From the IMG/VR virus record IMGVR_UViG_3300036795_000069, positions 1 through 51,570 of that record: a DNA stretch of 51,570 bases; one strand, 5' to 3'. Of the stretch, positions 29,484-42,894 are shown piece after piece. This DNA is from a virus. The position numbers and the translations under genes were made by a program. Positions within the stretch are counted from its first letter, which is position 1, and each line of letters begins with the position of its first letter. Below the pieces are notes generated by a model. That model did not search any database. It saw only the letters and a program-made list of their open reading frames with translations, and had not been told where the DNA came from.

Positions 29484-30008
29484 TTAGGGGCGGAGAGCCT
29501 CGAGGATCCTCCGTCGCCAATCCGTGTTGAACCGTAGTAAGTAGTTGACCAGATGGGCAGAAGCATCCATCGCGTGAGGCCATCCAGGAAAGTACAACCC
29601 TAACTTCTTTAGCACGTCTGCTGTCACTGGGTTGCCCTTATCCTTACCGCCCTGATGAGCCGTCTGAAACACAACGGGTCTACCAGTTTGCTGCTGCCAC
29701 AACTTGACGATGCCGATGTACTCCACAGAGTCCAGAACCAGTCCTGGTCGGCTCTTGTTCCTGTATTCGAACGATTCGCAAACAACGGTGAAGTCTTGAT
29801 CCGTCTCTTGTAGTTGCAGCAGGTCGTACAGATCCTCGTGATGGGCGCCATCGAGCTGACCACAACACCACAGGGCGCCTAAGACAGCACGGGAGTTAGG
29901 ATCTCCCATGACGAGCTTACCGGAGAGGTCAACACCGATTGGCTGGGGATTGCTTGCCATGGTAGCCCAGCCAGTTGTACCGCCTGGGTCTAACGACAGG
30001 ATCTTCAC
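29484..30008 (-). CDS. RuvC-like Holliday-junction resolvase
   Basis: The 174-aa protein has an RNase H fold with the RuvC metal-binding acids: LDPGGTTGW (first Asp, residues 6-14), VVCESFEYR (Glu near 77), and AMDASAHLVNYLL near residue 148 (last Asp). It should cut branched DNA during recombination or before packaging. It is the last gene of the minus arm and overlaps the upstream P-loop gene by four bases. Confidence 0.8.
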   Translation of the reverse strand: MKILSLDPGGTTGWATMASNPQPIGVDLSGKLVMGDPNSRAVLGALWCCGQLDGAHHEDLYDLLQLQETDQDFTVVCESFEYRNKSRPGLVLDSVEYIGIVKLWQQQTGRPVVFQTAHQGGKDKGNPVTADVLKKLGLYFPGWPHAMDASAHLVNYLLRFNTDWRRRILEALRP

Positions 30009-30325
30009 GCCATGTCTCCCCAGGTAAAGAACTGCACTGTCCTACCTAGCACCTGAGCCAGAATGATGTCGAGGTTATCAATGGCGATCTCGACGTTTCT
30101 ACCTGAACCGCGGCCTCTACCTTTCCACTCGTCAAAGGTAAACACTTGGTGGTAGTCCAGAACTGAATCTGGTCCACAACGAAGACGATCGGCTTCCGAC
30201 TGGTCAATGGTTAGCAGGATACGAGTCCAGCCAGGATAGGCTTTGGTCTTCTTACCTTCCTTGACCCACTCGACCGCGGCAGTAGTCTTACCTGATCTAC
30301 GGCCTTGCTGAATGATTGTGGTCAC
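30005..30325 (-). CDS. small P-loop protein, copy 1
   Basis: The 106-aa protein has a Walker A GRRSGKTT (residues 8-15) and a Walker B-like AIDNLDIIL near 80. It is shorter than a complete RecA-like or DEAD ATPase. It is a clear paralogue of 30615-30929: shared YPGW.RILL, DYRQVF-like and AIDNLDIIL blocks. The two genes flank 30322-30615. It may be a nucleotide-dependent regulator or terminase-like fragment; function not known. Confidence 0.7.
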   Translation of the reverse strand: MTTIIQQGRRSGKTTAAVEWVKEGKKTKAYPGWTRILLTIDQSEADRLRCGPDSVLDYHQVFTFDEWKGRGRGSGRNVEIAIDNLDIILAQVLGRTVQFFTWGDMA

Positions 30326-30615
30326 GACTGCAACCTATCCACTCGGTACTGACGGATATGAGCTAGAGCGGCAGCTGCAGCGTCGTTAGGCATGCCCATC
30401 TCCTTCATGAGCCAGTCACAGAGACCTGCATCGTGCTCTGCAGCTTCGGCAGCTTCCAGAAAGGCAATGGCTGTCTCCCGAGCTGTACCAGGAGTCATCT
30501 GGGTAGCCTTCTCATCCCAACGCAAGATGACGAATGGCTTTCCGTCGAAGAGGCTAACGCCTGCTTCTAACTGGAAGGCCTTATTCTCAATCGGTTCAGG
30601 CTTCCTCTTAGCCAT
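30322..30615 (-). CDS. hypothetical protein, 97 aa
   Basis: The start ATG 30615 overlaps the upstream stop (TGATG-type junction). The first half is beta-rich (FQLEAGVSLFDGKPFVILRW) and the second helical (TAIAFLEAAEAAEHDAGLCD). It lies between the two P-loop paralogues and shares four-base overlaps, so the three genes are probably one functional unit. Not recognised. Confidence 0.65.
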   Translation of the reverse strand: MAKRKPEPIENKAFQLEAGVSLFDGKPFVILRWDEKATQMTPGTARETAIAFLEAAEAAEHDAGLCDWLMKEMGMPNDAAAAALAHIRQYRVDRLQS

Positions 30616-30929
30616 CACATGCCTCCCCAAGTGATTAGGTCGACTGGAGCGCCTACCATCTGGAACAAAATGATGTCCAGGTTGTCGATAGCGATTGCCG
30701 GGCAGGCCCTGCCTCGCCTGGCGCGCTGCCACTCCTCGATATAGAATACCTGTCGGTAGTCCAAAGGCGCAGTCGGACCATTACGCAGTCGATTTGCCTC
30801 TTCCATACTGAGCACCAGCAGGATTCGAGACCAACCAGGATATCCTGGCACCCTCTTTCCAGCCTTGACCCATTCTATGGCCTTGGTGGTTTTACCCCAC
30901 CCACGACCTTGATTGATGAACTCTGGCAT
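30615..30929 (-). CDS. small P-loop protein, copy 2
   Basis: The 104-aa paralogue of 30005-30325 has a Walker A GRGWGKTT (residues 8-15), PGYPGWSRILLVLS, DYRQVFYIEEW and AIAIDNLDIILFQM. The Walker A of this copy has Trp where copy 1 has Ser. It probably arose by tandem duplication around 30322-30615. Confidence 0.7.
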   Translation of the reverse strand: MPEFINQGRGWGKTTKAIEWVKAGKRVPGYPGWSRILLVLSMEEANRLRNGPTAPLDYRQVFYIEEWQRARRGRACPAIAIDNLDIILFQMVGAPVDLITWGGM

Positions 30930-32019: not shown

Positions 32020-34401
32020 CTAAACCTCACCCCAGCTCGCGCCGACCTTGCAGTCGACCTGGAATCTAACGTAGTCGCCAACTACAGCCTTGCCATGCTT
32101 CAGCATGACTTCGCTCATCACGGCAGTCACTTCGTCGGCATCGGCGGCATCACACTCGGCGAGGATAGAGTCGTGAACGATATTACGGAGGAAAGCCATT
32201 CCTCGAAGTCGTACGCGAAGTTCAGCCGCCGCCCCAAGGCAAATGTCGCTGGATGTAGACTGAGGCAGAAAAGCCAGGGCCTCTTTAAGTACATCGTCCT
32301 TATTGTCGTTGGTAATGAGCCAGAAGCGACGGCGTCGTCCGAAAGGAGTAACAAGATCTTCGCCCTGCAGAACACGCCGTTGAACATCCTGACGCCAGGC
32401 CACAATGCCTGGAATAACGTCAAAGAATCGTCGCATTCCATCTCGTGCTTCTCGTTCGGAGATCTTGAACTCTTGGGCAATGCTGAAGGCTTCACGACCG
32501 TAAGCGAGTCCGTATACATAAGCCTTGACTCGGATACGTAGCTCCTTCTTAGCAGCTGCATCCACGTCTCCGACGTTGGGATAGAGTACGGGTGTGAGCT
32601 CATTGAAGAGGTCTCGCGTCGGGTCATTGAAGATCTCCCGGAAGTACTCATCCTGAGCTAGGTAGCAGGCTATTCGAAGTTCAGCCTGACTGTAGTCAGG
32701 TTGGACGAAGACTCGTCCAGGTTTCGTAGGAATGAAAAGCTTTCGGATGACAGACTCTCGAGGAACGTTCTGGAGATTCGGATTTCGACAACTAAGTCGT
32801 CCTGTTGTAGTTCCGTGGACCAGGAATGTGGGGTGAACTCGACCCATGTAGAGCCGCTTTCGTGTTCCCTTGATGTATGTCCCGTAGAGCTTTGCTTCGC
32901 GTCGGTGTCGTAGTAGGATCTCACAGAAGCGGAAGAGGGCGGTGTCCATCTCACCACGTCGTGCCTTGACGTCACAGATCTCCTGGAGAACATCCTTGGC
33001 AGTAGACTCAACTTGGACTCCTAGCTCCGCCAATGCCTTCTTGACCTGAATGGGCGATCGGGGGTTGATCGGCCCCTTAGCAGGGTCGGAATACTGAAGG
33101 CTGAGTTCTTCCTCGATGTCGTCGATCCTCTTGAGGTAGGTCTCAGTCATCTCGTTCAGGAGCGGGATATCGACCTTGAGGCCATTAAGTTCCATGAACA
33201 TAAGTTGATTGGCAGCTCCAACAAGAAAGTCATGGAGCCACCGAAGATTGCGTCCCTCCGGAAGATACCATTGGGTAGGCGCAGGCTCATCTTCGAGTCG
33301 CTGACGAAAGATATGGTAAAGAGCCATCGTACATACAACGTCGTATGCGTTGTATTTGTACAGTACAGGTCGTGGCACGTTGGCATAGCTTTCACCCCCA
33401 CGAACGTAACGTCCAAGCTCGTCGTCATACTGAGGCGCTCCCAGGATCTCGACGGACATTTGCTTGAGGCCGTGAATGCCAGGACGCTCGTCGAGGACGT
33501 AGCTGGCGATCATGGTGTCGAAGAATGCTTCCAGGCTGCCCATGAGTGGGAAGAGGCCAGCCAAGTCGAACTTGAGGTTCTGTCCGATCAGCTTAGCCTT
33601 GACGAACAGTTCCCTCAGGGCTTCGATTACCACCTGCGATTTGCAGGCCTCTTCACCGAATACCACGGCCTTGCCCTGTGCATAGCAAACCCCGATACAC
33701 AGCATCTGGTACTTGTTCGGGTGGTCGAAGGAGGTGTCCTTCTCAATACCAACCTCAATATCCACCACCAGTTCCGGAAATGGTCTAAGTTCACCGCATG
33801 CCTGCATCGCTGACACTTCATCGTCGACGACTACGAACTTGGGCTCTTCCCACTTGTTGTTCGGGTCGAACTTGACCTTCCCGATATCCGTGACGAGATG
33901 CGGAAACATGTCTGCTGCACGAAGGCACGCGGCTGGATGTATGGTAGGGATGACGCGAACTCCAGGGAGCGTGCTTGTCGACTTCCCGGGCCCGACACGA
34001 AGTTTCGTGATGCCAGTGCGAGTTTGCAGAATCGTTTGTGCGGCTGCATTACCGAGAGCGACCACTGTCTCCACGTGTCGTCCCTGTAGATCGCCACGTA
34101 GCCGACCCACACAAGCTCGGAACGCTTCAGCAGGAGGCGTACTCCCATCTGGTGGTCGACAGAGTGCTGCATTGGTAAGGAGCGTATCTCCACGTCGAAT
34201 CCCATGATGCTGGAGTACGGAATCCAGGAGTTTCCCACTGGCACCGATGAACGGTTTGCCATATCTTGCTTCCTGCGCACCTGGCGCCTCCCCTACGAAA
34301 GCGATCTTGGCTTCGGCAGGTCCATCTGAGGGGACGAACTTACCAGCCTCTTGAAGAGGGCAATGATCACAGTCAGCACCCTCTGCCTTGATGATGCCCA
34401 C
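32020..34401 (-). CDS. uracil-DNA glycosylase/DNA polymerase I fusion
   Basis: This is a 793-aa two-enzyme protein. Residues 1-190 are a family 4 UDG: GEAPG at 37-41, KPFIG near 49, four cysteines (C11, C14, C81, C97) for an iron-sulphur cluster, and HPAA near 155. Next is a 3'-5' exonuclease with intact DIE (VVDIEVG), NLKFD and YNAYD motifs, and then a family A polymerase: DYSQAELRIACYLA (motif A), KAYVYGLAYGREAF (motif B) and HDSILAEC (motif C). It has no 5'-3' exonuclease domain. It is probably the replicative polymerase, with the UDG removing or sensing uracil. It shares one base with the transglycosylase gene start-stop. Confidence 0.93.
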   Translation of the reverse strand: MGIIKAEGADCDHCPLQEAGKFVPSDGPAEAKIAFVGEAPGAQEARYGKPFIGASGKLLDSVLQHHGIRRGDTLLTNAALCRPPDGSTPPAEAFRACVGRLRGDLQGRHVETVVALGNAAAQTILQTRTGITKLRVGPGKSTSTLPGVRVIPTIHPAACLRAADMFPHLVTDIGKVKFDPNNKWEEPKFVVVDDEVSAMQACGELRPFPELVVDIEVGIEKDTSFDHPNKYQMLCIGVCYAQGKAVVFGEEACKSQVVIEALRELFVKAKLIGQNLKFDLAGLFPLMGSLEAFFDTMIASYVLDERPGIHGLKQMSVEILGAPQYDDELGRYVRGGESYANVPRPVLYKYNAYDVVCTMALYHIFRQRLEDEPAPTQWYLPEGRNLRWLHDFLVGAANQLMFMELNGLKVDIPLLNEMTETYLKRIDDIEEELSLQYSDPAKGPINPRSPIQVKKALAELGVQVESTAKDVLQEICDVKARRGEMDTALFRFCEILLRHRREAKLYGTYIKGTRKRLYMGRVHPTFLVHGTTTGRLSCRNPNLQNVPRESVIRKLFIPTKPGRVFVQPDYSQAELRIACYLAQDEYFREIFNDPTRDLFNELTPVLYPNVGDVDAAAKKELRIRVKAYVYGLAYGREAFSIAQEFKISEREARDGMRRFFDVIPGIVAWRQDVQRRVLQGEDLVTPFGRRRRFWLITNDNKDDVLKEALAFLPQSTSSDICLGAAAELRVRLRGMAFLRNIVHDSILAECDAADADEVTAVMSEVMLKHGKAVVGDYVRFQVDCKVGASWGEV

Positions 34402-35171
34402 TAGTCACCTACCAGCTCGAGGAGCTCCATGATGTTCCTCTCGACGAGCCCACGATCTATCGGGTGCATATCGAAGTAGTCATCAGTCCGTGTGAGGACA
34501 TGCTTGGACGTAGCTAGCGACTGACTGCACTTGGCATACACGTAAGGCAGCGAAGTGTCTATACTACGAACACCCTTGGCAAGGTCACGATTGTACATCT
34601 CTTCCCTGGCAAACTCAGACATGCCGAGGAAGTGAATGTGGAAGCGACCAGGGTAGGCTCTTTGGATGTGAGCTGCCAACATGTGCCTGACGAGAATGCT
34701 GCTACCGTGACCGTTACTAAGGGTCGTATGCATGTGCTTCGGGATACCAATCGTACGCACCCAACGCTTCTCGACTACGCCTCTGACGGTCTCAAAGAAC
34801 TCAGAGTAGTCCAAGCCTTGAGCAACTACCATGTATCGGAAGCCTGGCAAGATCTGCTCCTGGAACTCTTGTACCTTGTCCAGCGTGCCACGAACGCTTT
34901 GCATTACGTCAGGTACCACGATCTCGGTGGGCCTAAGCTCCCTGGCGATCTTGTTCAAGGCCTCCGTGCTCCACAGAGTACCTTCGAAGGCACCGTTGTC
35001 CAAGATGACAAGGTCGCCTCGACGTACTGTTTCTGCGTACGTGTTGCGGTAGGTTACACTTCTGTCCCATAGACTGGGTAGCACAAGCTGAGTGCGAGTA
35101 TCCAACACGTCGCCGATGTGGCTGAGTGGTGGAATAAGGGCGATGTCAGTCACTGATGAAACCTGCTTCAT
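34401..35171 (-). CDS. DpdA-like deazaguanine DNA transglycosylase
   Basis: The 256-aa TGT-like TIM barrel has VILDNGAFEGTLWS near residue 55, IVVPDVMQSVRGT near 85 (Asp), a GIPKHMH loop near 145, HIHFLGMSEF near 180 and GVRSIDTSLPYVYAK near 204 (candidate nucleophile Asp). This fits the phage DpdA group, which swaps guanine in DNA for a 7-deazaguanine. It is much shorter than tRNA TGTs and lacks an obvious CXCXXC zinc site. Genes for preQ0 synthesis follow 1-4 kb upstream in the same operon. The start overlaps 35146-35367 by 26 bases; GTG 35153 is an alternative. Confidence 0.75.
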   Translation of the reverse strand: MKQVSSVTDIALIPPLSHIGDVLDTRTQLVLPSLWDRSVTYRNTYAETVRRGDLVILDNGAFEGTLWSTEALNKIARELRPTEIVVPDVMQSVRGTLDKVQEFQEQILPGFRYMVVAQGLDYSEFFETVRGVVEKRWVRTIGIPKHMHTTLSNGHGSSILVRHMLAAHIQRAYPGRFHIHFLGMSEFAREEMYNRDLAKGVRSIDTSLPYVYAKCSQSLATSKHVLTRTDDYFDMHPIDRGLVERNIMELLELVGD

Positions 35172-35367
35172 GACTCACGTTGAAGGTGGTTTCGTCCATC
35201 GAGTCGACGAGCTCCATCTCAGCGACCTCGCCGTTGTCGTATTGCTCCTGCATGAAGGTTGCAACTTGCTCCTCGGTCTTGCAACCGGGGAAGACACTCT
35301 GATCGATCTCCCCGCCCGGAAGACGAGGTGGCTCGAACGTGCCTTGAAGAGTGATACGAATTGCCAT
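35146..35367 (-). CDS. hypothetical protein, 73 aa
   Basis: A beta-strand start (MAIRITLQGTFEPP) is followed by FPGCKTEEQVATFMQEQYDN and an acidic tail. The ATG overlaps the upstream stop (TAATG junction) and so is coupled. It is positioned between the MazG-like pair and the transglycosylase. Small adaptor or nucleotide-related protein possible; not recognised. Confidence 0.65.
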   Translation of the reverse strand: MAIRITLQGTFEPPRLPGGEIDQSVFPGCKTEEQVATFMQEQYDNGEVAEMELVDSMDETTFNVSHEAGFISD

Positions 35368-35723
35368 TACTTGCCCCACATCTCTCGTAGTGGCTTGAAC
35401 TCGTCAACAGGCATCTGGCCAGTGCTGACTTCTTCACCAGCGTCGCCAATGACATACTGCTGAATGAACCAGAGCTTGATGAAGGTGTATCGGGCGTAGT
35501 TGGCCAGATCGACAACCTCCTCCATTGCCATCCGAAGAGTGTCGGTCTGCAAGAAGCCTGTCGCGCCATACTGCTCGGCGCCAGCCTCATGTCTTCCTCG
35601 ACACCACTCGTCAAAGGCGTCGCTAGCCTGTTGGAGTGTCTCCGGCGACGCCGTTTTGTACGGGGACGTCGAGTTGGGGCTTGACTCCGAATCGCCGGAT
35701 GTTCTCGGCTCGTTTGACTGCAT
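35367..35723 (-). CDS. MazG-like helical protein
   Basis: A 118-aa protein with a disordered Ser/Pro-rich start followed by a helical domain (FDEWCRGRHEAGAEQYGATG, LRMAMEEVVDLANYARYTFI). The EEVxD-type motif is that of all-alpha NTP pyrophosphohydrolases. It starts inside the 3' end of the next MazG-like gene (101-bp overlap), with GGAG seven bases before the ATG. It may clean or tune nucleotide pools for modified-DNA synthesis. Confidence 0.55.
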   Translation of the reverse strand: MQSNEPRTSGDSESSPNSTSPYKTASPETLQQASDAFDEWCRGRHEAGAEQYGATGFLQTDTLRMAMEEVVDLANYARYTFIKLWFIQQYVIGDAGEEVSTGQMPVDEFKPLREMWGK

Positions 35724-36021
35724 ATGCTTGCTCCAGGTCGATGTTGAGTAGTGCGGCAGTGTTCAACAGGTAGATGTAGACGTCGGTGACCTCCATGGCA
35801 ACGTCGAAGCGAACCTTCGCGTCCTTGAAGCTAAGAGAGCCCCGTTCGATCTTCTTGACCAGATTGGCAAGCTCTCCTACTTCCCCTGCAAGGCTCAGGA
35901 CATGGTGCGGAAGACTAGGCGCAACGTCAGGAAACCAACGCTTGCTGTCTTCCATGCATTGGATGGACAGCTTCGCCGTTGTGCTGGGCTCGCGTCCTTT
36001 TCCATTGCTGCTTTCATTCAT
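35623..36021 (-). CDS. MazG-like NTP pyrophosphohydrolase
   Basis: The 132-aa protein carries the core SLAGEVGELANLVKKIERG (residues 44-62), with the EVGE acid pair, and VRFDVAMEVTDVYIYLLNTA near 75, with ExxD ligands. That is a canonical MazG fold in which Mg-bound acids hydrolyse dNTPs or NTPs to monophosphates. The ATG at 36021 lies in the -10 box of the promoter at 36020-36049, so a downstream start (for example ATG 35955) may be used from that promoter. Confidence 0.75.
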   Translation of the reverse strand: MNESSNGKGREPSTTAKLSIQCMEDSKRWFPDVAPSLPHHVLSLAGEVGELANLVKKIERGSLSFKDAKVRFDVAMEVTDVYIYLLNTAALLNIDLEQAYAVKRAENIRRFGVKPQLDVPVQNGVAGDTPTG

Positions 36022-36049
36022 TATATCATACCGCCCTATGGAATCTCAA
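36020..36049 (-). promoter_or_regulatory. Minus-strand extended -10 promoter
   Basis: A -35 TTGAGA (36049-36044), an 18-bp spacer and TATAAT (36025-36020) preceded by TGA. It points at the MazG-like genes, transglycosylase and polymerase. It has the same design as the promoters at 3147, 45045 and 48162. Confidence 0.7.
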
Positions 36050-36053
36050 GACC

Positions 36054-36197
36054 CTATTCGGGGTCAACTTCGATGATGATGATGTACGCACGTTTGTCGC
36101 GTGCCCATTTGGTGGTGATCTTGGCGTTCTGCTTGTCGAACTCCTCATCGTCACCAGATGGGAATTCCAGTATCACACCGGAGAGTTCAACGTTCAC
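36054..36197 (-). CDS. small protein, 47 aa
   Basis: It starts at a GTG overlapping the folE stop (GTGA). The 47 residues (VNVELSGVILEFPSGDDEEF, ITTKWARDKRAYIIII) form an alternating beta pattern with an acidic loop. It ends just upstream of the promoter at 36020-36049. Not recognised; start chosen by coupling. Confidence 0.5.
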   Translation of the reverse strand: MNVELSGVILEFPSGDDEEFDKQNAKITTKWARDKRAYIIIIEVDPE

Positions 36198-37099
36198 GGC
36201 AGCATCGACATGAACTCGGCCTTCGCCGTCCGGTTGTGATCCGCGAACACTCCCCTCATGCAGCTCGTCGTGGTCAGCGCTCCCGGCATTCCCACACCGC
36301 GCATCGCCATACATAGGTGCTCACCCTTCATGACGACAGCGATACCTCTGGGAGCCAACTTCTCCTCGAGGAAGTCGGCAATGGCAACCGTGAGGTTCTC
36401 CTGCACCCACAGTCCCTTGCTGATGTTCTTCACTGCGCGGGCGAACTTGCTCAGGCCCGCAATGCGTCTTTCAGGTACATAGGCGACGTGCGCCATACCG
36501 AAGAACGGAACTACGTGGTGGTTGCACAGAGCGTAGAACGGCATGTCCTGAACGACAACCATCTCGTCGATGTGTTCGGTATTCTCGAACGTAGTGAACT
36601 TGTACTCTTCGGGTGTCGTCATCTCACGAAGCATCGTGGCGAATCGCTTAGGCGTATCCTGCCCGTGCTCAGAGTTCACATCTAGCCCTGTGGTGTTATG
36701 CAGTAGGGCCCGCGCGAGGTCTATATCGCTGTCTGACAACACGAGTCGTGGGTGAGTGCCTCGCCCCATTTCCTTCAGGTCTACCTCTCGCTGCATGGCT
36801 GGCGTCAGAGGGTTGTTGTACCAGTGAGGTCCCTGTTCGCCTACAGTTGGATATGTGTTCTTGACATAGCTGAGGCCTGCCTTGGTGTTCTCCTCCTCTT
36901 TACTGTCGAACAAGTCCTCGAACTCCTCGGCGTTGTTCTCGTCAGTAATGCTAGTATGAGGAGGCTGACAACCATCACCGACGTAGTGTGTAGCGTCTCT
37001 GACTGGTGCATTGTTCACACGATCGACAACGTCTTTGTTCTTGTCGAACCACTCGTCAACAGGCATCCCCACAGGCTTCTCGGGGTTCTGTCCGGGCAT
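36194..37099 (-). CDS. folE: GTP cyclohydrolase I
   Basis: The 301-aa catalytic domain (about 120-301) has zinc ligands and active site in ALCNHHVVPFFGMAHVAYVP (C192, H194, H195) and EHLCMAMRGVG (C263), plus GLSKFARAVKNISKGLWVQE for the allosteric/fold motif. It makes 7,8-dihydroneopterin triphosphate from GTP, the first step of preQ0 synthesis. About 115 N-terminal residues exceed the usual length and include GDGCQPPH; their role is unknown. It directly follows queE (one-base gap). Start ATG 37099 has GAGAGGAA upstream. Confidence 0.92.
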   Translation of the reverse strand: MPGQNPEKPVGMPVDEWFDKNKDVVDRVNNAPVRDATHYVGDGCQPPHTSITDENNAEEFEDLFDSKEEENTKAGLSYVKNTYPTVGEQGPHWYNNPLTPAMQREVDLKEMGRGTHPRLVLSDSDIDLARALLHNTTGLDVNSEHGQDTPKRFATMLREMTTPEEYKFTTFENTEHIDEMVVVQDMPFYALCNHHVVPFFGMAHVAYVPERRIAGLSKFARAVKNISKGLWVQENLTVAIADFLEEKLAPRGIAVVMKGEHLCMAMRGVGMPGALTTTSCMRGVFADHNRTAKAEFMSMLP

Positions 37100-37100
37100 A

Positions 37101-37784
37101 TCAGATTCCTCTCTGCGTACGATCCCAGATGTAGTTGTGTACCTGAACATTCATCTTCCAAGGCATGCCTGACTTGACAAGCCACTCGGCGAGGACCTTC
37201 TCCTCCATCTTACCCCAGACCACGCCGACATAGGTGTCGATGTTGTTATACCGTGCAATGTACTTATCGTACAGTACCTCAGCCAGTTCTAGGTCGTCTT
37301 CATTTGCAACGACGAACTTGATGGCATGACGTCCAGAGGACTTACCCAACATGTCGACATTGTGATACCGCATCTCGTTGCTGCAGTCCTCGCCGCTGGA
37401 TGGGAGCTTCCAGTCCATGCAGAAGGTGATACGGTTCACAGCCCACTCAGGGTAGGCAAGAGTGCCGTTGGAGAAGCACTCGATGTTCTTGTCGTTCCAG
37501 AGCAAGTTGGTCAGCATCTCCAGCTCGCGTGTCGACTGGAGGAATGGCTCGCCACCTGTGAAGCAGACGTTGTTCACCTGGAATGTCTGAATCTCGTCAT
37601 GAAGCTCTGCCACCGTGACCTTGCGCCATTCGTTTCGATAGATTTTCGGGTCGACAGCATAAGGGGTATCACAAGGCCAGCCAGGGCAACGCAGGTTACA
37701 GCCACCAAACCGAACGAATAAAGTAGGCGAGCCCACATTGAGGCCCTCTCCTTGTATCGAAGGGTAGAGCTCGGATAGACGCAT
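37101..37784 (-). CDS. queE: 7-carboxy-7-deazaguanine synthase
   Basis: The 227-aa radical SAM enzyme converts CPH4 to CDG in the preQ0 pathway. It begins MRLSELYPSIQGEG, the family hallmark, followed by the cluster motif GGCNLRCPGWPCDTP near residue 30. Here the cysteines are spaced CX3CX4C rather than CX3CX2C. NVCFTGGEPFLQ near 75 is the SAM-binding GGE. The start was placed at ATG 37784 behind GGAAGGAA. Its neighbours are folE, a 36-aa membrane protein and queD. Confidence 0.9.
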   Translation of the reverse strand: MRLSELYPSIQGEGLNVGSPTLFVRFGGCNLRCPGWPCDTPYAVDPKIYRNEWRKVTVAELHDEIQTFQVNNVCFTGGEPFLQSTRELEMLTNLLWNDKNIECFSNGTLAYPEWAVNRITFCMDWKLPSSGEDCSNEMRYHNVDMLGKSSGRHAIKFVVANEDDLELAEVLYDKYIARYNNIDTYVGVVWGKMEEKVLAEWLVKSGMPWKMNVQVHNYIWDRTQRGI

Positions 37785-37786
37785 AT

Positions 37787-37897
37787 CTATTCCTTCCACT
37801 TCTTCACCACAACGGAAACGCCCGCGGCGAGTACGAACAACACCACAGCAAGGATAAGGATTTGAACGATCCAAGTCCCGAATTCTGACCAAGCCAT
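37787..37897 (-). CDS. single-span membrane mini-protein, 36 aa
   Basis: A 36-aa ORF with AGGAG six bases before the ATG encodes MAWSEFGTWIVQ, then a hydrophobic helix (ILILAVVLFVLAAGVSVVV) and KKWKE. It lies in the 121-bp gap between queD and queE. It was probably co-opted in the operon rather than being part of the pathway. The hydrophobic stretch happens to contain a CTGTGGTGTT motif. Confidence 0.6.
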   Translation of the reverse strand: MAWSEFGTWIVQILILAVVLFVLAAGVSVVVKKWKE

Positions 37898-37905
37898 TAT
37901 AGCTC

Positions 37906-38376
37906 CTAGTCGTGACTGAACGAGGCTCCGTTGACTCGTGTCTCATCGACCTCGATGGAGAGACCGTAGACGAGTGGGTTCTTGTTGAAGTTGTCCCACA
38001 TCTCGGCGTAGACCCACAAGGCGATGTTCTCGGTCGTAGGATCCTGAGGCCACACGCGAAGACCGGGAAGCTTGCCACCTTCCCAAGGCTTGCCCTGTAA
38101 GGTCTCCTGAGGCTTGGCGAACACGAGATAGTCAGCCCACGGATCTAGAGCATTGAGGTGTAGGTGATGATCCCACGTGTCGTCGAGGTAGCTACGGAAC
38201 GTCTTCTTGACCGAGTGGAAGTCGAGTCCACCGAGGATGCCCTGATCGTTGAGCACTCCGGAGATCGTCAACTTCACTTGCATGCCATGTCCGTGAATCT
38301 GCTGGCACTTACCTGGCAGGTTCATCAGGCGATGAGCGATCTCGATGTTGTGTCGAAGAATGATGCTACTGGGCAT
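37906..38376 (-). CDS. queD: 6-carboxy-5,6,7,8-tetrahydropterin synthase
   Basis: The 156-aa QueD/PTPS-family enzyme has H15 in RHNIEIAHRL, C24 in GKCQQ and H28/H30 in QQIHGHG as the zinc and catalytic residues, then DFHSVK near 57, WDHHLHLN near 74, PTTENIA near 117 and a C-terminal Glu in IEVDET. It converts dihydroneopterin triphosphate to CPH4, between FolE and QueE. The start overlaps the queC stop by 11 bases. Confidence 0.92.
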   Translation of the reverse strand: MPSSIILRHNIEIAHRLMNLPGKCQQIHGHGMQVKLTISGVLNDQGILGGLDFHSVKKTFRSYLDDTWDHHLHLNALDPWADYLVFAKPQETLQGKPWEGGKLPGLRVWPQDPTTENIALWVYAEMWDNFNKNPLVYGLSIEVDETRVNGASFSHD

Positions 38377-39151
38377 TGACTGCGGTCCTCCAGTACTCGG
38401 GCGACTCATACTCGGTCGGATCTGCAACACCTGCGAGTGCGAATGCTTCGGCGCGTTCAACACATGTGCCGCATCGACCACAGTGGATAGCCGTCCCGTT
38501 GTAGCAGCTCCATGTGTTCTTGAACGGGACATTCAGCTCACGACCTTCCGAAACGATGTCGGCTTTGGTCCTATACAGGAAGGGTGTGTAGATAACGAAG
38601 TCAGGACGGATAAAGCCTTCGTTCGCCGTGATGAGCAGCTCTTGCAGGCGGTTCACGAAATCAGGACGACAGTCAGGGTAAACGAAGTGGTCACCAGCAT
38701 GAATGCCCAGAGCCAAGATGTTCGCCCCCTCGGATACCGCAAGACCCGCAGCGATATTCGACATGATAGCATTGCGATTAGGAACCACAGTTGCGGCCAT
38801 ATTGCTTGCTGCATAGTTCCCCTCCGGCACTTCGCGAGAGTGATCCGTGAGGACAGAGGCCTTCAAGAGGCTGGTGATGCTCGTGATGTCCACGATGGTG
38901 TGGGCAATGTTGAGGAGGTCGCACGTGAGTCGGGCGTACTTCAGTTCTTTCTTGTGTCGCTGTCCGTAGTCGAACGATACTGCGTGGACCTGCTTCGACG
39001 GGTCGATAATGCTGTCGTTGCTGAGCACGTCGTAGAGGAGGACAGTTGAGTCCAAGCCTCCCGACATAACGACAATGGCCTTCTGACTCTTGCGACGCTC
39101 CTCCAATGAAGGAAGACCTGCAGCAAGTTCAGCCTGGGTTGCCTGGGACAT
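38366..39151 (-). CDS. queC: 7-cyano-7-deazaguanine synthase
   Basis: The 261-aa ATP-dependent enzyme turns CDG into preQ0. The PP-loop VVMSGGLDSTVLL is near residue 28 and YGQRHKKELKYA near 62. The zinc site at the C-terminus is CYNGTAIHCGRCGTCVE (four Cys). ATG 39151 was chosen because TAGGAG lies five bases upstream; it overlaps the primase-helicase end by 23 bases. It completes the route GTP to preQ0 within the phage. Confidence 0.92.
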   Translation of the reverse strand: MSQATQAELAAGLPSLEERRKSQKAIVVMSGGLDSTVLLYDVLSNDSIIDPSKQVHAVSFDYGQRHKKELKYARLTCDLLNIAHTIVDITSITSLLKASVLTDHSREVPEGNYAASNMAATVVPNRNAIMSNIAAGLAVSEGANILALGIHAGDHFVYPDCRPDFVNRLQELLITANEGFIRPDFVIYTPFLYRTKADIVSEGRELNVPFKNTWSCYNGTAIHCGRCGTCVERAEAFALAGVADPTEYESPEYWRTAVNAQ

Positions 39152-41372
39152 GGATGCTCCTACTGAATAGTTGTTCGGTTCGGCCTGACTTCTGTCGGCT
39201 GATGAGTCCACGCTGCTCTAGTGTCAGGAAGACTTGATCTGCTTCCCGAGCCGAGAGGTGATAGGCTTGCATCAAGTACGATCGCTTGACACCGTTCTTG
39301 TTCCTGATGGCTCGGTAGATGGTGTCGAGTTGTTTCTCACCCGTCGACCTACCGAGGTTGTTCATGACATCGATCACGTAGGTGCGCCAGCCACGCATGT
39401 AGTAGATGGCATGAAGGATGTCTTGCATCTCGATGGTGATCTTCGAGTCACGTTGTCGAGATGTAGCCATGAGCAATGCTGCCTTCAGTGTCGACTTAGA
39501 GAGCCTGTCGAATGTAGGTGTCATGTGCTCAGGGTTCATACTACGCATCCCGAAGTCAAGCATGTCCGCTTCAAGCTTGTTGTAACGGTACCACGCATCG
39601 GGTGTCATTGTTGCGTTCCACTCACGTGGAGAGTTCTGTTCGATCTTCTGACCGGCAATAGTGATCGTTGCCTGTGTCTGGTAGTGAGCAACGAGGTCTT
39701 GCATCTCGTCCTTGATTGCCTTCTTATTGCCTAGGTTGATCTCTGTGGGAGGACCTAGTGGCTTGAGCTTGCTTACGTCTGACTCTGCCGTGATGAAGAT
39801 GAATCGGGGCATGAAGCCTGACGAGACTTGCTCCGACGTAAGAAGGTCTTGGATCTTGGTGCGAATACCACCCGCAAACACAATGAGACGAGGGTCGCGT
39901 ACTTCGATCGTCTCTTTCCGGAGGACCCGCTTCTGCATTTTGCCATCATACAGTTTGGTGAGGAGTTCTGGCATGCCAGCGTAATAGTCCCGCTTGGTGA
40001 TCTGTTCAAGCAGTCCGGAGAACTCATCACGCAGGAAGACAGAAGGTCGTCCAGGACGCGTTGATAGGCCGCCCAGAAGTCCTTCGATGCTGCCGTCAGT
40101 GGCGAGAACGATGTCATCATCAACCTCCATAATGAGGTCCATCGCGATGTCCATAGCTGTAGTCTTCCTGGTCAACGTTGTATCGGCCAGGATCATGAAC
40201 CACAGGTTTGGGTACACAGTTCCGAATGATGTAGGTAGGCGAACGTTGCCACAGAGAAGAGAGGCCAGGATCGTGAAAGCTCCCGCCTGATGGTACTGCT
40301 TCGCTGCGTCGCCCAGCCCGCCTGCCCACTCTATGTACCTTTCTATGAACGTCGGATTGTCCTCTACGTACTGAATTTCCTCATCGGTAAGAAGAGGGAC
40401 AGCTGAGGCAGCCATTGCTTCTGGAATGGCTACACCACTATGCAATTCGTTGATGTCAAACGCCTTACAGACGTCACGCCAGAGGAACATCTTGTCTCTA
40501 CCATCACGTCTGTACTTGTTACACTTCGCCACGTCCGCTACGACGTATACCTCTTCACGTTTCATACCTGCTTCAAAGAGGCCTAGCAACATGCCCCAGA
40601 GCTTCTTCGACCAGTCTTCATCGGGCTGAGGCTCAATCTGAAAGGCGTTCCAGGTGATAGGATGTAACCTGTTGCGCCTCAGAGCCAGCAGTTCGTCGGC
40701 ATCCATCGTCGGAAGTTCTTCCGGGAATGGGATGTCCATGTACTTGAATGCCTGGATCTGCGGGTAGACGTCAAAGTCGGTAAGTCTGAACCTTGATCGA
40801 TTGACCGTGATCATATGAACTTCAGCCGGTGAGGTCTGACCCATCACCTTGCCGTACTTATGATTGTACGTTCCAGGTACACGAAGCAGCTGGGATAGAT
40901 CCCAACCACTTCGATCAGCACCATCCTGCACATGCTTGTAGGCAATGCGTCTGCTAACGTCTTCAGCCATCTCAGGATCAATGGCTGCCTCGAAGCACCA
41001 GAACGCCTGGAATCTATTAGGCGACGACTCAACGACGATGGAAGGGTTTACGTCTAGCTGTTCTGGTTGACACTCGTCGAGATCCGCCCAAGCGTTAGCA
41101 CATGCGAACACAAAGTCCTTTGTTCGCTTCTTCCCCTTAAGAAGCTGCGGACAAAAATAAACGTCTTCAGTAATGTACCAGCGATTCACGAAGGCGATCA
41201 TGTCATCTTCTTGATCTGGCCACTTGAAGAATTCTTCCTGGAACTGGTTGTCTTCCTTGTTGATGCTACGGAGTATCCGCGCTAGGCAGACGATCCCTTC
41301 GGTTGTTCCGAAGACGGACCTGAAGAAGACACGTCGGACTTCATTCGTCTGAGGAGAGACCACCACTGACAA
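39129..41372 (-). CDS. primase-helicase (AEP primase plus DUF3987-like ATPase)
   Basis: The 747-aa N-terminal half resembles archaeo-eukaryotic primases of the RepB/PrimPol type: ANAWADLDECQPEQLDVNPS near residue 95 with DLD metal ligands, SSPNRFQAFWCF near 118, and SQLLRVPGTYNHKYG near 162. The second half is an AAA/RecA-like helicase: FMILADTTLTRKTTAMDIAM (P-loop variant) near 395 and VFLRDEFSGLL near 440. It begins with a TTG start seven bases after GGGGAG. It is expected to lay primers and unwind DNA. Confidence 0.85.
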   Translation of the reverse strand: MSVVVSPQTNEVRRVFFRSVFGTTEGIVCLARILRSINKEDNQFQEEFFKWPDQEDDMIAFVNRWYITEDVYFCPQLLKGKKRTKDFVFACANAWADLDECQPEQLDVNPSIVVESSPNRFQAFWCFEAAIDPEMAEDVSRRIAYKHVQDGADRSGWDLSQLLRVPGTYNHKYGKVMGQTSPAEVHMITVNRSRFRLTDFDVYPQIQAFKYMDIPFPEELPTMDADELLALRRNRLHPITWNAFQIEPQPDEDWSKKLWGMLLGLFEAGMKREEVYVVADVAKCNKYRRDGRDKMFLWRDVCKAFDINELHSGVAIPEAMAASAVPLLTDEEIQYVEDNPTFIERYIEWAGGLGDAAKQYHQAGAFTILASLLCGNVRLPTSFGTVYPNLWFMILADTTLTRKTTAMDIAMDLIMEVDDDIVLATDGSIEGLLGGLSTRPGRPSVFLRDEFSGLLEQITKRDYYAGMPELLTKLYDGKMQKRVLRKETIEVRDPRLIVFAGGIRTKIQDLLTSEQVSSGFMPRFIFITAESDVSKLKPLGPPTEINLGNKKAIKDEMQDLVAHYQTQATITIAGQKIEQNSPREWNATMTPDAWYRYNKLEADMLDFGMRSMNPEHMTPTFDRLSKSTLKAALLMATSRQRDSKITIEMQDILHAIYYMRGWRTYVIDVMNNLGRSTGEKQLDTIYRAIRNKNGVKRSYLMQAYHLSAREADQVFLTLEQRGLISRQKSGRTEQLFSRSIHVPGNPG

Positions 41373-42775: not shown

Positions 42776-42801
42776 TGTTTCACCTCCCATCTAAATGGTT
42801 G

Positions 42802-42894
42802 TGGACTCACCCGGAGTCGAACCGGGATCTCTACACGCTGCAAGCTGGGGGTCTAGCTGGCTGTGTAGGCTCTTCCTATCTGAGCTATGAGTCC
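42802..42894 (-). tRNA. tRNA with enlarged 26-nt anticodon loop
   Basis: The cloverleaf is complete: acceptor GGACTCA/TGAGTCC with discriminator A, D-arm GCTC/GAGC, T-arm CCCGG/CCGGG with loop TTCGACT, variable GAGAT and anticodon stem TACAC/GTGTA. The anticodon loop is 26 nt instead of 7 and can fold on itself (CAGCT..AGCTTG). Removing 19 nt would leave TTGCAGC, anticodon GCA (Cys); TGC (Ala) is another reading. No CCA is encoded. Identity is uncertain. Confidence 0.8.

What the first reader, a model, noticed from the sequence alone, without database searches (positions are those of the whole stretch)
34401..39151. Complete GTP-to-preQ0 pathway next to a DpdA-like transglycosylase
folE, queE, queD and queC are all present with intact active sites, and a short TGT-like protein lies in the same operon. 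This predicts 7-deazaguanine (preQ0 or its derivative) in phage DNA. No converting enzyme for other derivatives is evident, so preQ0 is the likeliest product.
Basis: partly seen in the sequence, partly recalled or inferred. Interest (0 to 1): 0.75.

Follow-up and report, generated by a model that had tools for sequence, protein, structure and literature searches.

The report
Phage guanine-replacement operon with short DpdA
This virus carries all the genes to make a modified guanine (preQ0) and a small base-swapping enzyme of the DpdA3 type to put it in its DNA, and the genes around that enzyme suggest the swap may happen on DNA building blocks before replication rather than on finished DNA.

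Summary
On the minus strand of a 51.6 kb virus record with 127-bp terminal repeats lie intact queC, queD, queE and folE. The 256-aa protein at 34401-35171 is a real transglycosylase-family enzyme. It matches no family by single sequence. A profile of it and its phage homologues hits a solved DNA-guanine transglycosylase (E 2.6e-4). Its AlphaFold2 model (pLDDT 83) matches tRNA-guanine transglycosylases first, with the catalytic Asp pair kept and no zinc site. It belongs to the short subfamily found in Campylobacter CP220, Cellulophaga phiST and Flavobacterium immuto; from memory this is the published DpdA3, linked to complete G replacement. It is not DpdA1 or DpdA2.

New here is a neighbourhood contrast. 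DpdA1 loci lie next to the DNA sliding clamp (21/28 clusters) and never next to a small P-loop kinase (0/28). DpdA3 loci show the reverse (0/32 and 22/32). The window's own lineage repeats the order folE-mazG-mazG2-dpdA3-polA, with a UDG domain fused to the polymerase. I favour exchange on nucleotides (dGMP to dPreQ0-MP), then incorporation by the polymerase (about 0.5). Exchange on finished DNA stays open. dPreQ0 is the likeliest product; dADG is possible.

The parts
39129..41372 (-). primase with DUF3987 and RepB-primase domains, first gene of the cassette
   Evidence: Pfam PF13148 6e-15, PF16793 9e-9; PHROG 10514 3e-98
38366..39151 (-). QueC, 7-cyano-7-deazaguanine (preQ0) synthase
   Evidence: PF06508 3e-59; TIGR00364 above cut-off; SGGLDS and CX7CX2CX2C
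37906..38376 (-). QueD, 6-carboxytetrahydropterin synthase
   Evidence: PF01242 2e-20; PHROG 2389 1e-26; CQQIHGH, PTTEN
37101..37784 (-). QueE, radical SAM 7-carboxy-7-deazaguanine synthase, cluster motif CX3CX4C
   Evidence: PHROG 2076 2e-36; TIGR03963 4e-39; motifs
36194..37099 (-). FolE, GTP cyclohydrolase I, with a long N-terminal extension
   Evidence: PF01227 4e-53; CNHH and HLC
35623..36021 (-). MazG-like nucleoside triphosphate pyrophosphohydrolase with EXXE...EXXD motif
   Evidence: PHROG 229 7e-8; conserved in the same place in L279, L269, L280, L270
35367..35723 (-). second small, probably MazG-like helical protein (MazG2; filing as MazG-like is by eye)
   Evidence: PHROG 11184 3.5e-4; homologues at the same place in L273, L270, L280, L279, L269
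35146..35379 (-). 77-aa open frame of unknown role; overlaps both neighbours
   Evidence: ORF only; no homologue found in related loci
34401..35171 (-). short TGT-family base-exchange enzyme, DpdA3-type
   Evidence: tblastn to phiST, CP220, Bacillus, Weizmannia phages; profile hit 7ui4; AF2 pLDDT 83 and Foldseek TGT; D58, D88, Q118, D205 conserved
32020..34401 (-). DNA polymerase A with N-terminal family-4 uracil-DNA glycosylase domain and 3'-5' exonuclease; stop of dpdA3 and start of the polymerase share one base (TAGTG)
   Evidence: PF03167, PF01612, PF00476; TIGR00758 at its cut-off; junction

Best explanation
The operon turns GTP into free preQ0 (FolE, QueD, QueE, QueC), and a short TGT-family enzyme of the DpdA3 type swaps guanine for it so that the phage genome carries a 7-deazaguanine, most likely dPreQ0. 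I think the swap most likely happens on nucleotides before replication. The MazG-like pyrophosphohydrolase would turn dGTP into dGMP, DpdA3 would exchange the base to give dPreQ0-MP, host kinases would raise it to the triphosphate, and the translationally coupled UDG-exo-PolA would use it in place of dGTP. Shown by sequence and structure: the four pathway enzymes, TGT homology and fold, the conserved catalytic Asp pair, the conserved operon order, and the kinase/clamp contrast between DpdA3 and DpdA1 loci. Inferred: the substrate of the exchange, the role of MazG, the polymerase's preference, the degree of replacement, and the product. I put the identity of the pathway and of the exchange enzyme at about 0.93; the figure below is for the whole statement, nucleotide level included.
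For: Pathway enzymes. TGT membership: profile hit to 7ui4; AF2 model pLDDT 82.9, pTM 0.84; the 12 best PDB fold hits are TGT at probability 1.00; best viral match phiST, TM 0.8. Relatives include CP220, where Campylobacter phage DNA is reported to carry dADG and a modified-dGTP route was proposed (PMC6884629). Neighbourhood with a matched control from the same collection: small P-loop protein within four genes on the same strand in 22/32 DpdA3 clusters vs 0/28 DpdA1 clusters; sliding clamp 0/32 vs 21/28. Enlarged set: kinase 25/46 vs 0/32. The kinases resemble deoxynucleoside, thymidylate and NadR kinases, and three or more unrelated families were recruited (CP220 adds an HD-AAA_33 protein). 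Of DpdA3 clusters next to a PolA, 13/15 have a UDG-fused polymerase vs 3/17 for DpdA1. The window's order folE-mazG-mazG2-dpdA3-polA recurs in divergent contigs L279, L269, L280, L270. Precedent: MazZ of phage S-2L makes dGMP from dGTP for base replacement (PMC8342488).
Against: From memory, the paper that named DpdA3 (Cui 2023, not held) concluded that insertion is post-replicative. The window has no nucleotide kinase, so its last steps would rest on the host. Kinase-type loci mostly form one half of the tree, and the window sits in the other half on a very long branch, so the family-wide kinase signal bears on it only indirectly. MazG is not enriched across the family (5/46 vs 1/32). No TGT-family enzyme is known to me to act on free nucleotides.
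Confidence: 0.5

Rival explanations
1. Same pathway and same product, but DpdA3 exchanges guanine in finished phage DNA, after replication, as published for DpdA1 and claimed for the whole family; the neighbouring kinases and MazG only serve dNTP supply.
For: TGT and DpdA act on polymers; phage DpdA puts preQ0 into DNA in E. coli (PMC6884629). Both DpdA1 and DpdA3 genes lie near a DNA polymerase. DpdA3 proteins are no more acidic than DpdA1.
Against: DpdA3 loci lack the clamp association that DpdA1 loci show, and have kinases instead. Complete replacement is easier before replication than after.
Confidence: 0.38
2. The product is dADG (or another 7-deazaguanine) rather than dPreQ0, because QueC forms ADG on the way to preQ0 and DpdA3 may accept it. 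This can be true under either level of exchange.
For: CP220, a homologue carrier, belongs to the Campylobacter phages reported to hold dADG (PMC6884629).
Against: The minimal set FolE, QueD, QueE, QueC, DpdA gives dPreQ0 in Rosebush and CAjan; no amidohydrolase or amidotransferase gene was recognised among the genes scanned.
Confidence: 0.22
3. The operon boosts host queuosine in tRNA instead of modifying phage DNA.
For: Suggested in PMC6884629 for phages with preQ0 genes but no DpdA.
Against: A DpdA-type gene is present and coupled to the DNA polymerase; the enzyme lacks the zinc site of tRNA-acting TGTs; relatives with the same gene carry modified DNA.
Confidence: 0.04

Closest known systems
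DpdA3 subfamily (CP220, phiST, immuto type); name and complete-replacement claim from memory of Cui et al. 2023, NAR, not held here
   Same: Homologous short TGT-family protein (256-266 aa), same catalytic Asp pair, next to que genes
   Different: About 25% identity only; longest branch in the family tree; coupled to a UDG-PolA and two MazG-like genes; no kinase
DpdA1 of phage 9g, and bacterial DpdA (7ui4)
   Same: TGT-family base exchange with preQ0, same que genes, near a polymerase
   Different: DpdA1 profile does not detect it and vice versa; DpdA1 loci carry the sliding clamp, this one does not
DpdA2 of Vibrio phage nt-1
   Same: DpdA-type protein beside queD, queE, folE, queC
   Different: 464 aa, embedded in a T4-like genome, no kinase or polymerase next to it
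Bacillus BSTP12/BSP7, Weizmannia Youna2 and Brevundimonas StAshley phages
   Same: Gene order queC-queD-queE-(folE)-dpdA3-UDG-PolA
   Different: Bacillus/Weizmannia phages add a P-loop kinase; StAshley has a dNMP kinase elsewhere
Z-cluster of phage S-2L (MazZ-PurZ-DatZ)
   Same: Would work alike: a MazG enzyme makes dGMP for a base-replacing step, then a polymerase incorporates
   Different: No PurZ or DatZ homologue recognised; base made separately and swapped rather than converted

Membership tests
GTP-to-preQ0 pathway | FolE, QueD, QueE, QueC with active-site motifs | tested here: met
TGT / DpdA superfamily | TIM-barrel TGT fold | tested here: met
   AF2 pLDDT 82.9; 12 best PDB hits are TGT
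TGT / DpdA superfamily | Asp acid/base and Asp nucleophile | tested here: met
   D58 (LDNGAFE) and D205 (SIDTS) at least 90% conserved in 46 members; they align with LDSGAF and SCDSSSW of DpdA1, but that profile alignment is weak
tRNA-guanine transglycosylase (tRNA-acting) | zinc site CXCXXC...H | tested here: not met
   P0001 has a single Cys
DpdA3 | sequence homology to CP220, phiST, immuto proteins | tested here: met
   tblastn 4e-12 to phiST and 7e-3 to CP220; immuto via Youna2; one profile finds all
DpdA3 | complete replacement of dG in virion DNA | not testable with these tools
   needs nucleoside mass spectrometry
DpdA1 | found by a DpdA1 profile; clamp-linked locus | tested here: not met
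   no protein found by both profiles; no clamp beside the gene in the window
Nucleotide-level base replacement (works-like claim) | NTP pyrophosphohydrolase or nucleotide kinase in the operon | tested here: inconclusive
   MazG with intact motif present, kinase absent
Nucleotide-level base replacement (works-like claim) | base exchange on free dGMP or dGTP | not testable with these tools
   needs enzyme assay

The most novel reading that the evidence does not exclude
DpdA3 is a transglycosylase that edits the nucleotide pool rather than DNA: MazG makes dGMP, DpdA3 swaps its base for preQ0, a kinase of phage or host raises it, and a dedicated UDG-fused PolA copies with it, giving total G replacement. 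This would be a guanine analogue of the Z-genome system, and the DpdA family would split into clamp-linked DNA editors (DpdA1) and kinase/polymerase-linked nucleotide editors (DpdA3).
Probability: 0.45. Interest if true: 0.85.

Novelty: new member of a known kind. Interest (0 to 1): 0.52.

Why it matters
How phages replace every guanine is unsettled: before or after replication. The contrast found here (clamp beside DpdA1, nucleotide kinase or UDG-polymerase beside DpdA3) predicts two different modes and names isolated phages (Bacillus BSTP12/BSP7, Weizmannia Youna2, Brevundimonas StAshley) and single enzymes in which to test it. If the nucleotide route is right, these operons are a self-contained kit for making DNA with a replaced guanine.

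Tried and rejected
Single-sequence searches of P0001 in Pfam, NCBIfam and PDB found nothing useful; the DUF1107 hit is below cut-off. The search for related loci with single proteins or small alignments found no relatives in viral contigs; motif scans worked. Low isoelectric point as a sign of not binding DNA: rejected, DpdA1 proteins are acidic too. MazG as a family-wide marker: rejected, 5/46 vs 1/32 clusters. UDG-PolA as a DpdA3-only marker: rejected, it also occurs in other phages and in three DpdA1 clusters. Profile-profile comparison of DpdA3 with DpdA1: catalytic motifs align but probability only 4%. Kinase in the window: none found. The paper naming DpdA3 could not be read.

Full report
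WHAT IS THERE. The window is a virus record of 51,570 bases with a 127-base direct terminal repeat and 55% G+C, so it is probably a complete genome. It has terminase, portal, head and tape-measure genes on the plus strand and a replication module on the minus strand. In transcription order that module ends: primase 41372-39129, QueC 39151-38366, QueD 38376-37906, QueE 37784-37101, FolE 37099-36194, MazG 36021-35623, MazG2 35723-35367, a 77-aa frame 35379-35146, the TGT-like protein 35171-34401, and a UDG-exonuclease-PolA 34401-32020. Many junctions overlap, and the TGT-like gene and the polymerase share one base, TAGTG. The four pathway enzymes score far beyond chance and keep their motifs.

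WHAT THE SHORT PROTEIN IS. On its own it matches nothing in Pfam, NCBIfam or PDB. tblastn finds relatives in Cellulophaga phiST, Chryseobacterium MA9V-3, Weizmannia Youna2, Bacillus BSTP and BSP7 phages, and Campylobacter CP220. Through Youna2 it reaches Flavobacterium immuto, annotated DNA guanine transglycosylase, and Brevundimonas StAshley. A profile of eight of these finds the solved DNA-guanine transglycosylase 7ui4 (E 2.6e-4). AlphaFold2 on 46 members gave pLDDT 82.9. Foldseek ranks tRNA-guanine transglycosylases first to twelfth in the PDB and phiST first among viral models. D58, D88, Q118 and D205 are conserved. There is one Cys only, so no zinc site. That this subfamily is the published DpdA3 is from memory: Cui 2023 was not held.

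NEIGHBOURS. In relatives the gene lies beside que genes, P-loop kinases, MazG and DNA polymerase. As a control I collected DpdA1 loci from named phages and, by the same kind of motif scan, from viral contigs, and used the same gene caller and profiles. In 60%-identity clusters with at least three genes on each side, a small P-loop protein within four genes occurs in 22/32 DpdA3 and 0/28 DpdA1 clusters, and a sliding clamp in 0/32 and 21/28. An enlarged set gives kinase 25/46 vs 0/32. Clusters are not fully independent, because most kinase-type proteins form one half of the tree, so the Fisher values in those calls overstate the evidence. But at least three unrelated kinase families are involved, and the main one resembles deoxynucleoside, thymidylate and NadR kinases.

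THE WINDOW'S OWN LINEAGE. In the tree the window protein has the longest branch and lies, weakly placed, on the side with the polymerase-linked members. A second motif scan found closer relatives: L279, L269, L280 and L270 carry MazG, MazG2, DpdA3 and PolA in the window's order, and L279 also has QueC, QueD, QueE and FolE in the same order. Where a PolA lies near DpdA3 it carries a UDG domain in 13/15 clusters, against 3/17 for DpdA1. UDG-PolA also occurs in phages with pyrimidine-replacement gene sets such as MW202455. Why a guanine-replacing phage keeps a UDG domain is unexplained.

MECHANISM. The four-gene pathway gives preQ0 (established pathway). The exchange enzyme and its chemistry follow from homology. 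The level of exchange is inferred. In S-2L, a MazG-like enzyme makes dGMP from dGTP for base replacement (PMC8342488). For Campylobacter phages a modified-dGTP route was proposed when no DpdA was recognised there (PMC6884629); CP220 does hold a member of this family, between an HD-kinase and a thymidylate kinase. The window has MazG but no kinase, so host kinases would be needed. I give nucleotide-level exchange about 0.5 for the window and exchange on DNA about 0.38.

PRODUCT. No QueF or formyltransferase was found by profile, no ArcS or amidotransferase was recognised among the genes scanned, and QueC lacks the amidotransferase domain. By the published rule this predicts dPreQ0; dADG is the main alternative.

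VERDICT. A real, complete 7-deazaguanine operon in a deep branch of a known enzyme subfamily. The new content is the conserved MazG-MazG2-DpdA3-UDG-PolA module and the clamp/kinase contrast, which makes the pre- or post-replicative question testable.

Noticed in passing
window 32020-34401: Family-4 UDG domain fused to PolA; the same fusion occurs in phages with pyrimidine-replacement gene sets (MW202455, SP-15 hit). Role in a guanine-modifying phage unexplained.
   Followed up: partly
L268 1-1401 (-): A DpdA3 gene that appears to be interrupted by an intein placed just before the catalytic LDNGAFEG motif.
   Followed up: no
L275 2401-4230; L071 2896-4576: Two tandem DpdA3 genes in one locus.
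   Followed up: no
L009-L128 (viral contigs): Recurrent cassette DpdA3 - formyltransferase - AAA_28 kinase - QueF, predicting formyl-preQ1-type DNA in many uncultured phages.
   Followed up: partly
window 35367-35723: MazG2, a small helical protein conserved beside MazG only in the window's own DpdA3 lineage.
   Followed up: partly
window 36194-37099: FolE has an N-terminal extension of more than 100 aa ahead of the cyclohydrolase domain.
   Followed up: no
window 30005-30325 and 30615-30929: Two similar short proteins with a P-loop-like N terminus, probably a duplication.
   Followed up: no
window 42801-42894: tRNA-like gene with an unreadable anticodon (ARAGORN tRNA-???).
   Followed up: no
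L262-L267: DpdA3 homologues in contigs binned as bacterial genomes (Spirochaetia, Rhodobacteraceae, Clostridiales, Winogradskyella), three with the kinase-QueF cassette; likely phage contigs.
   Followed up: no
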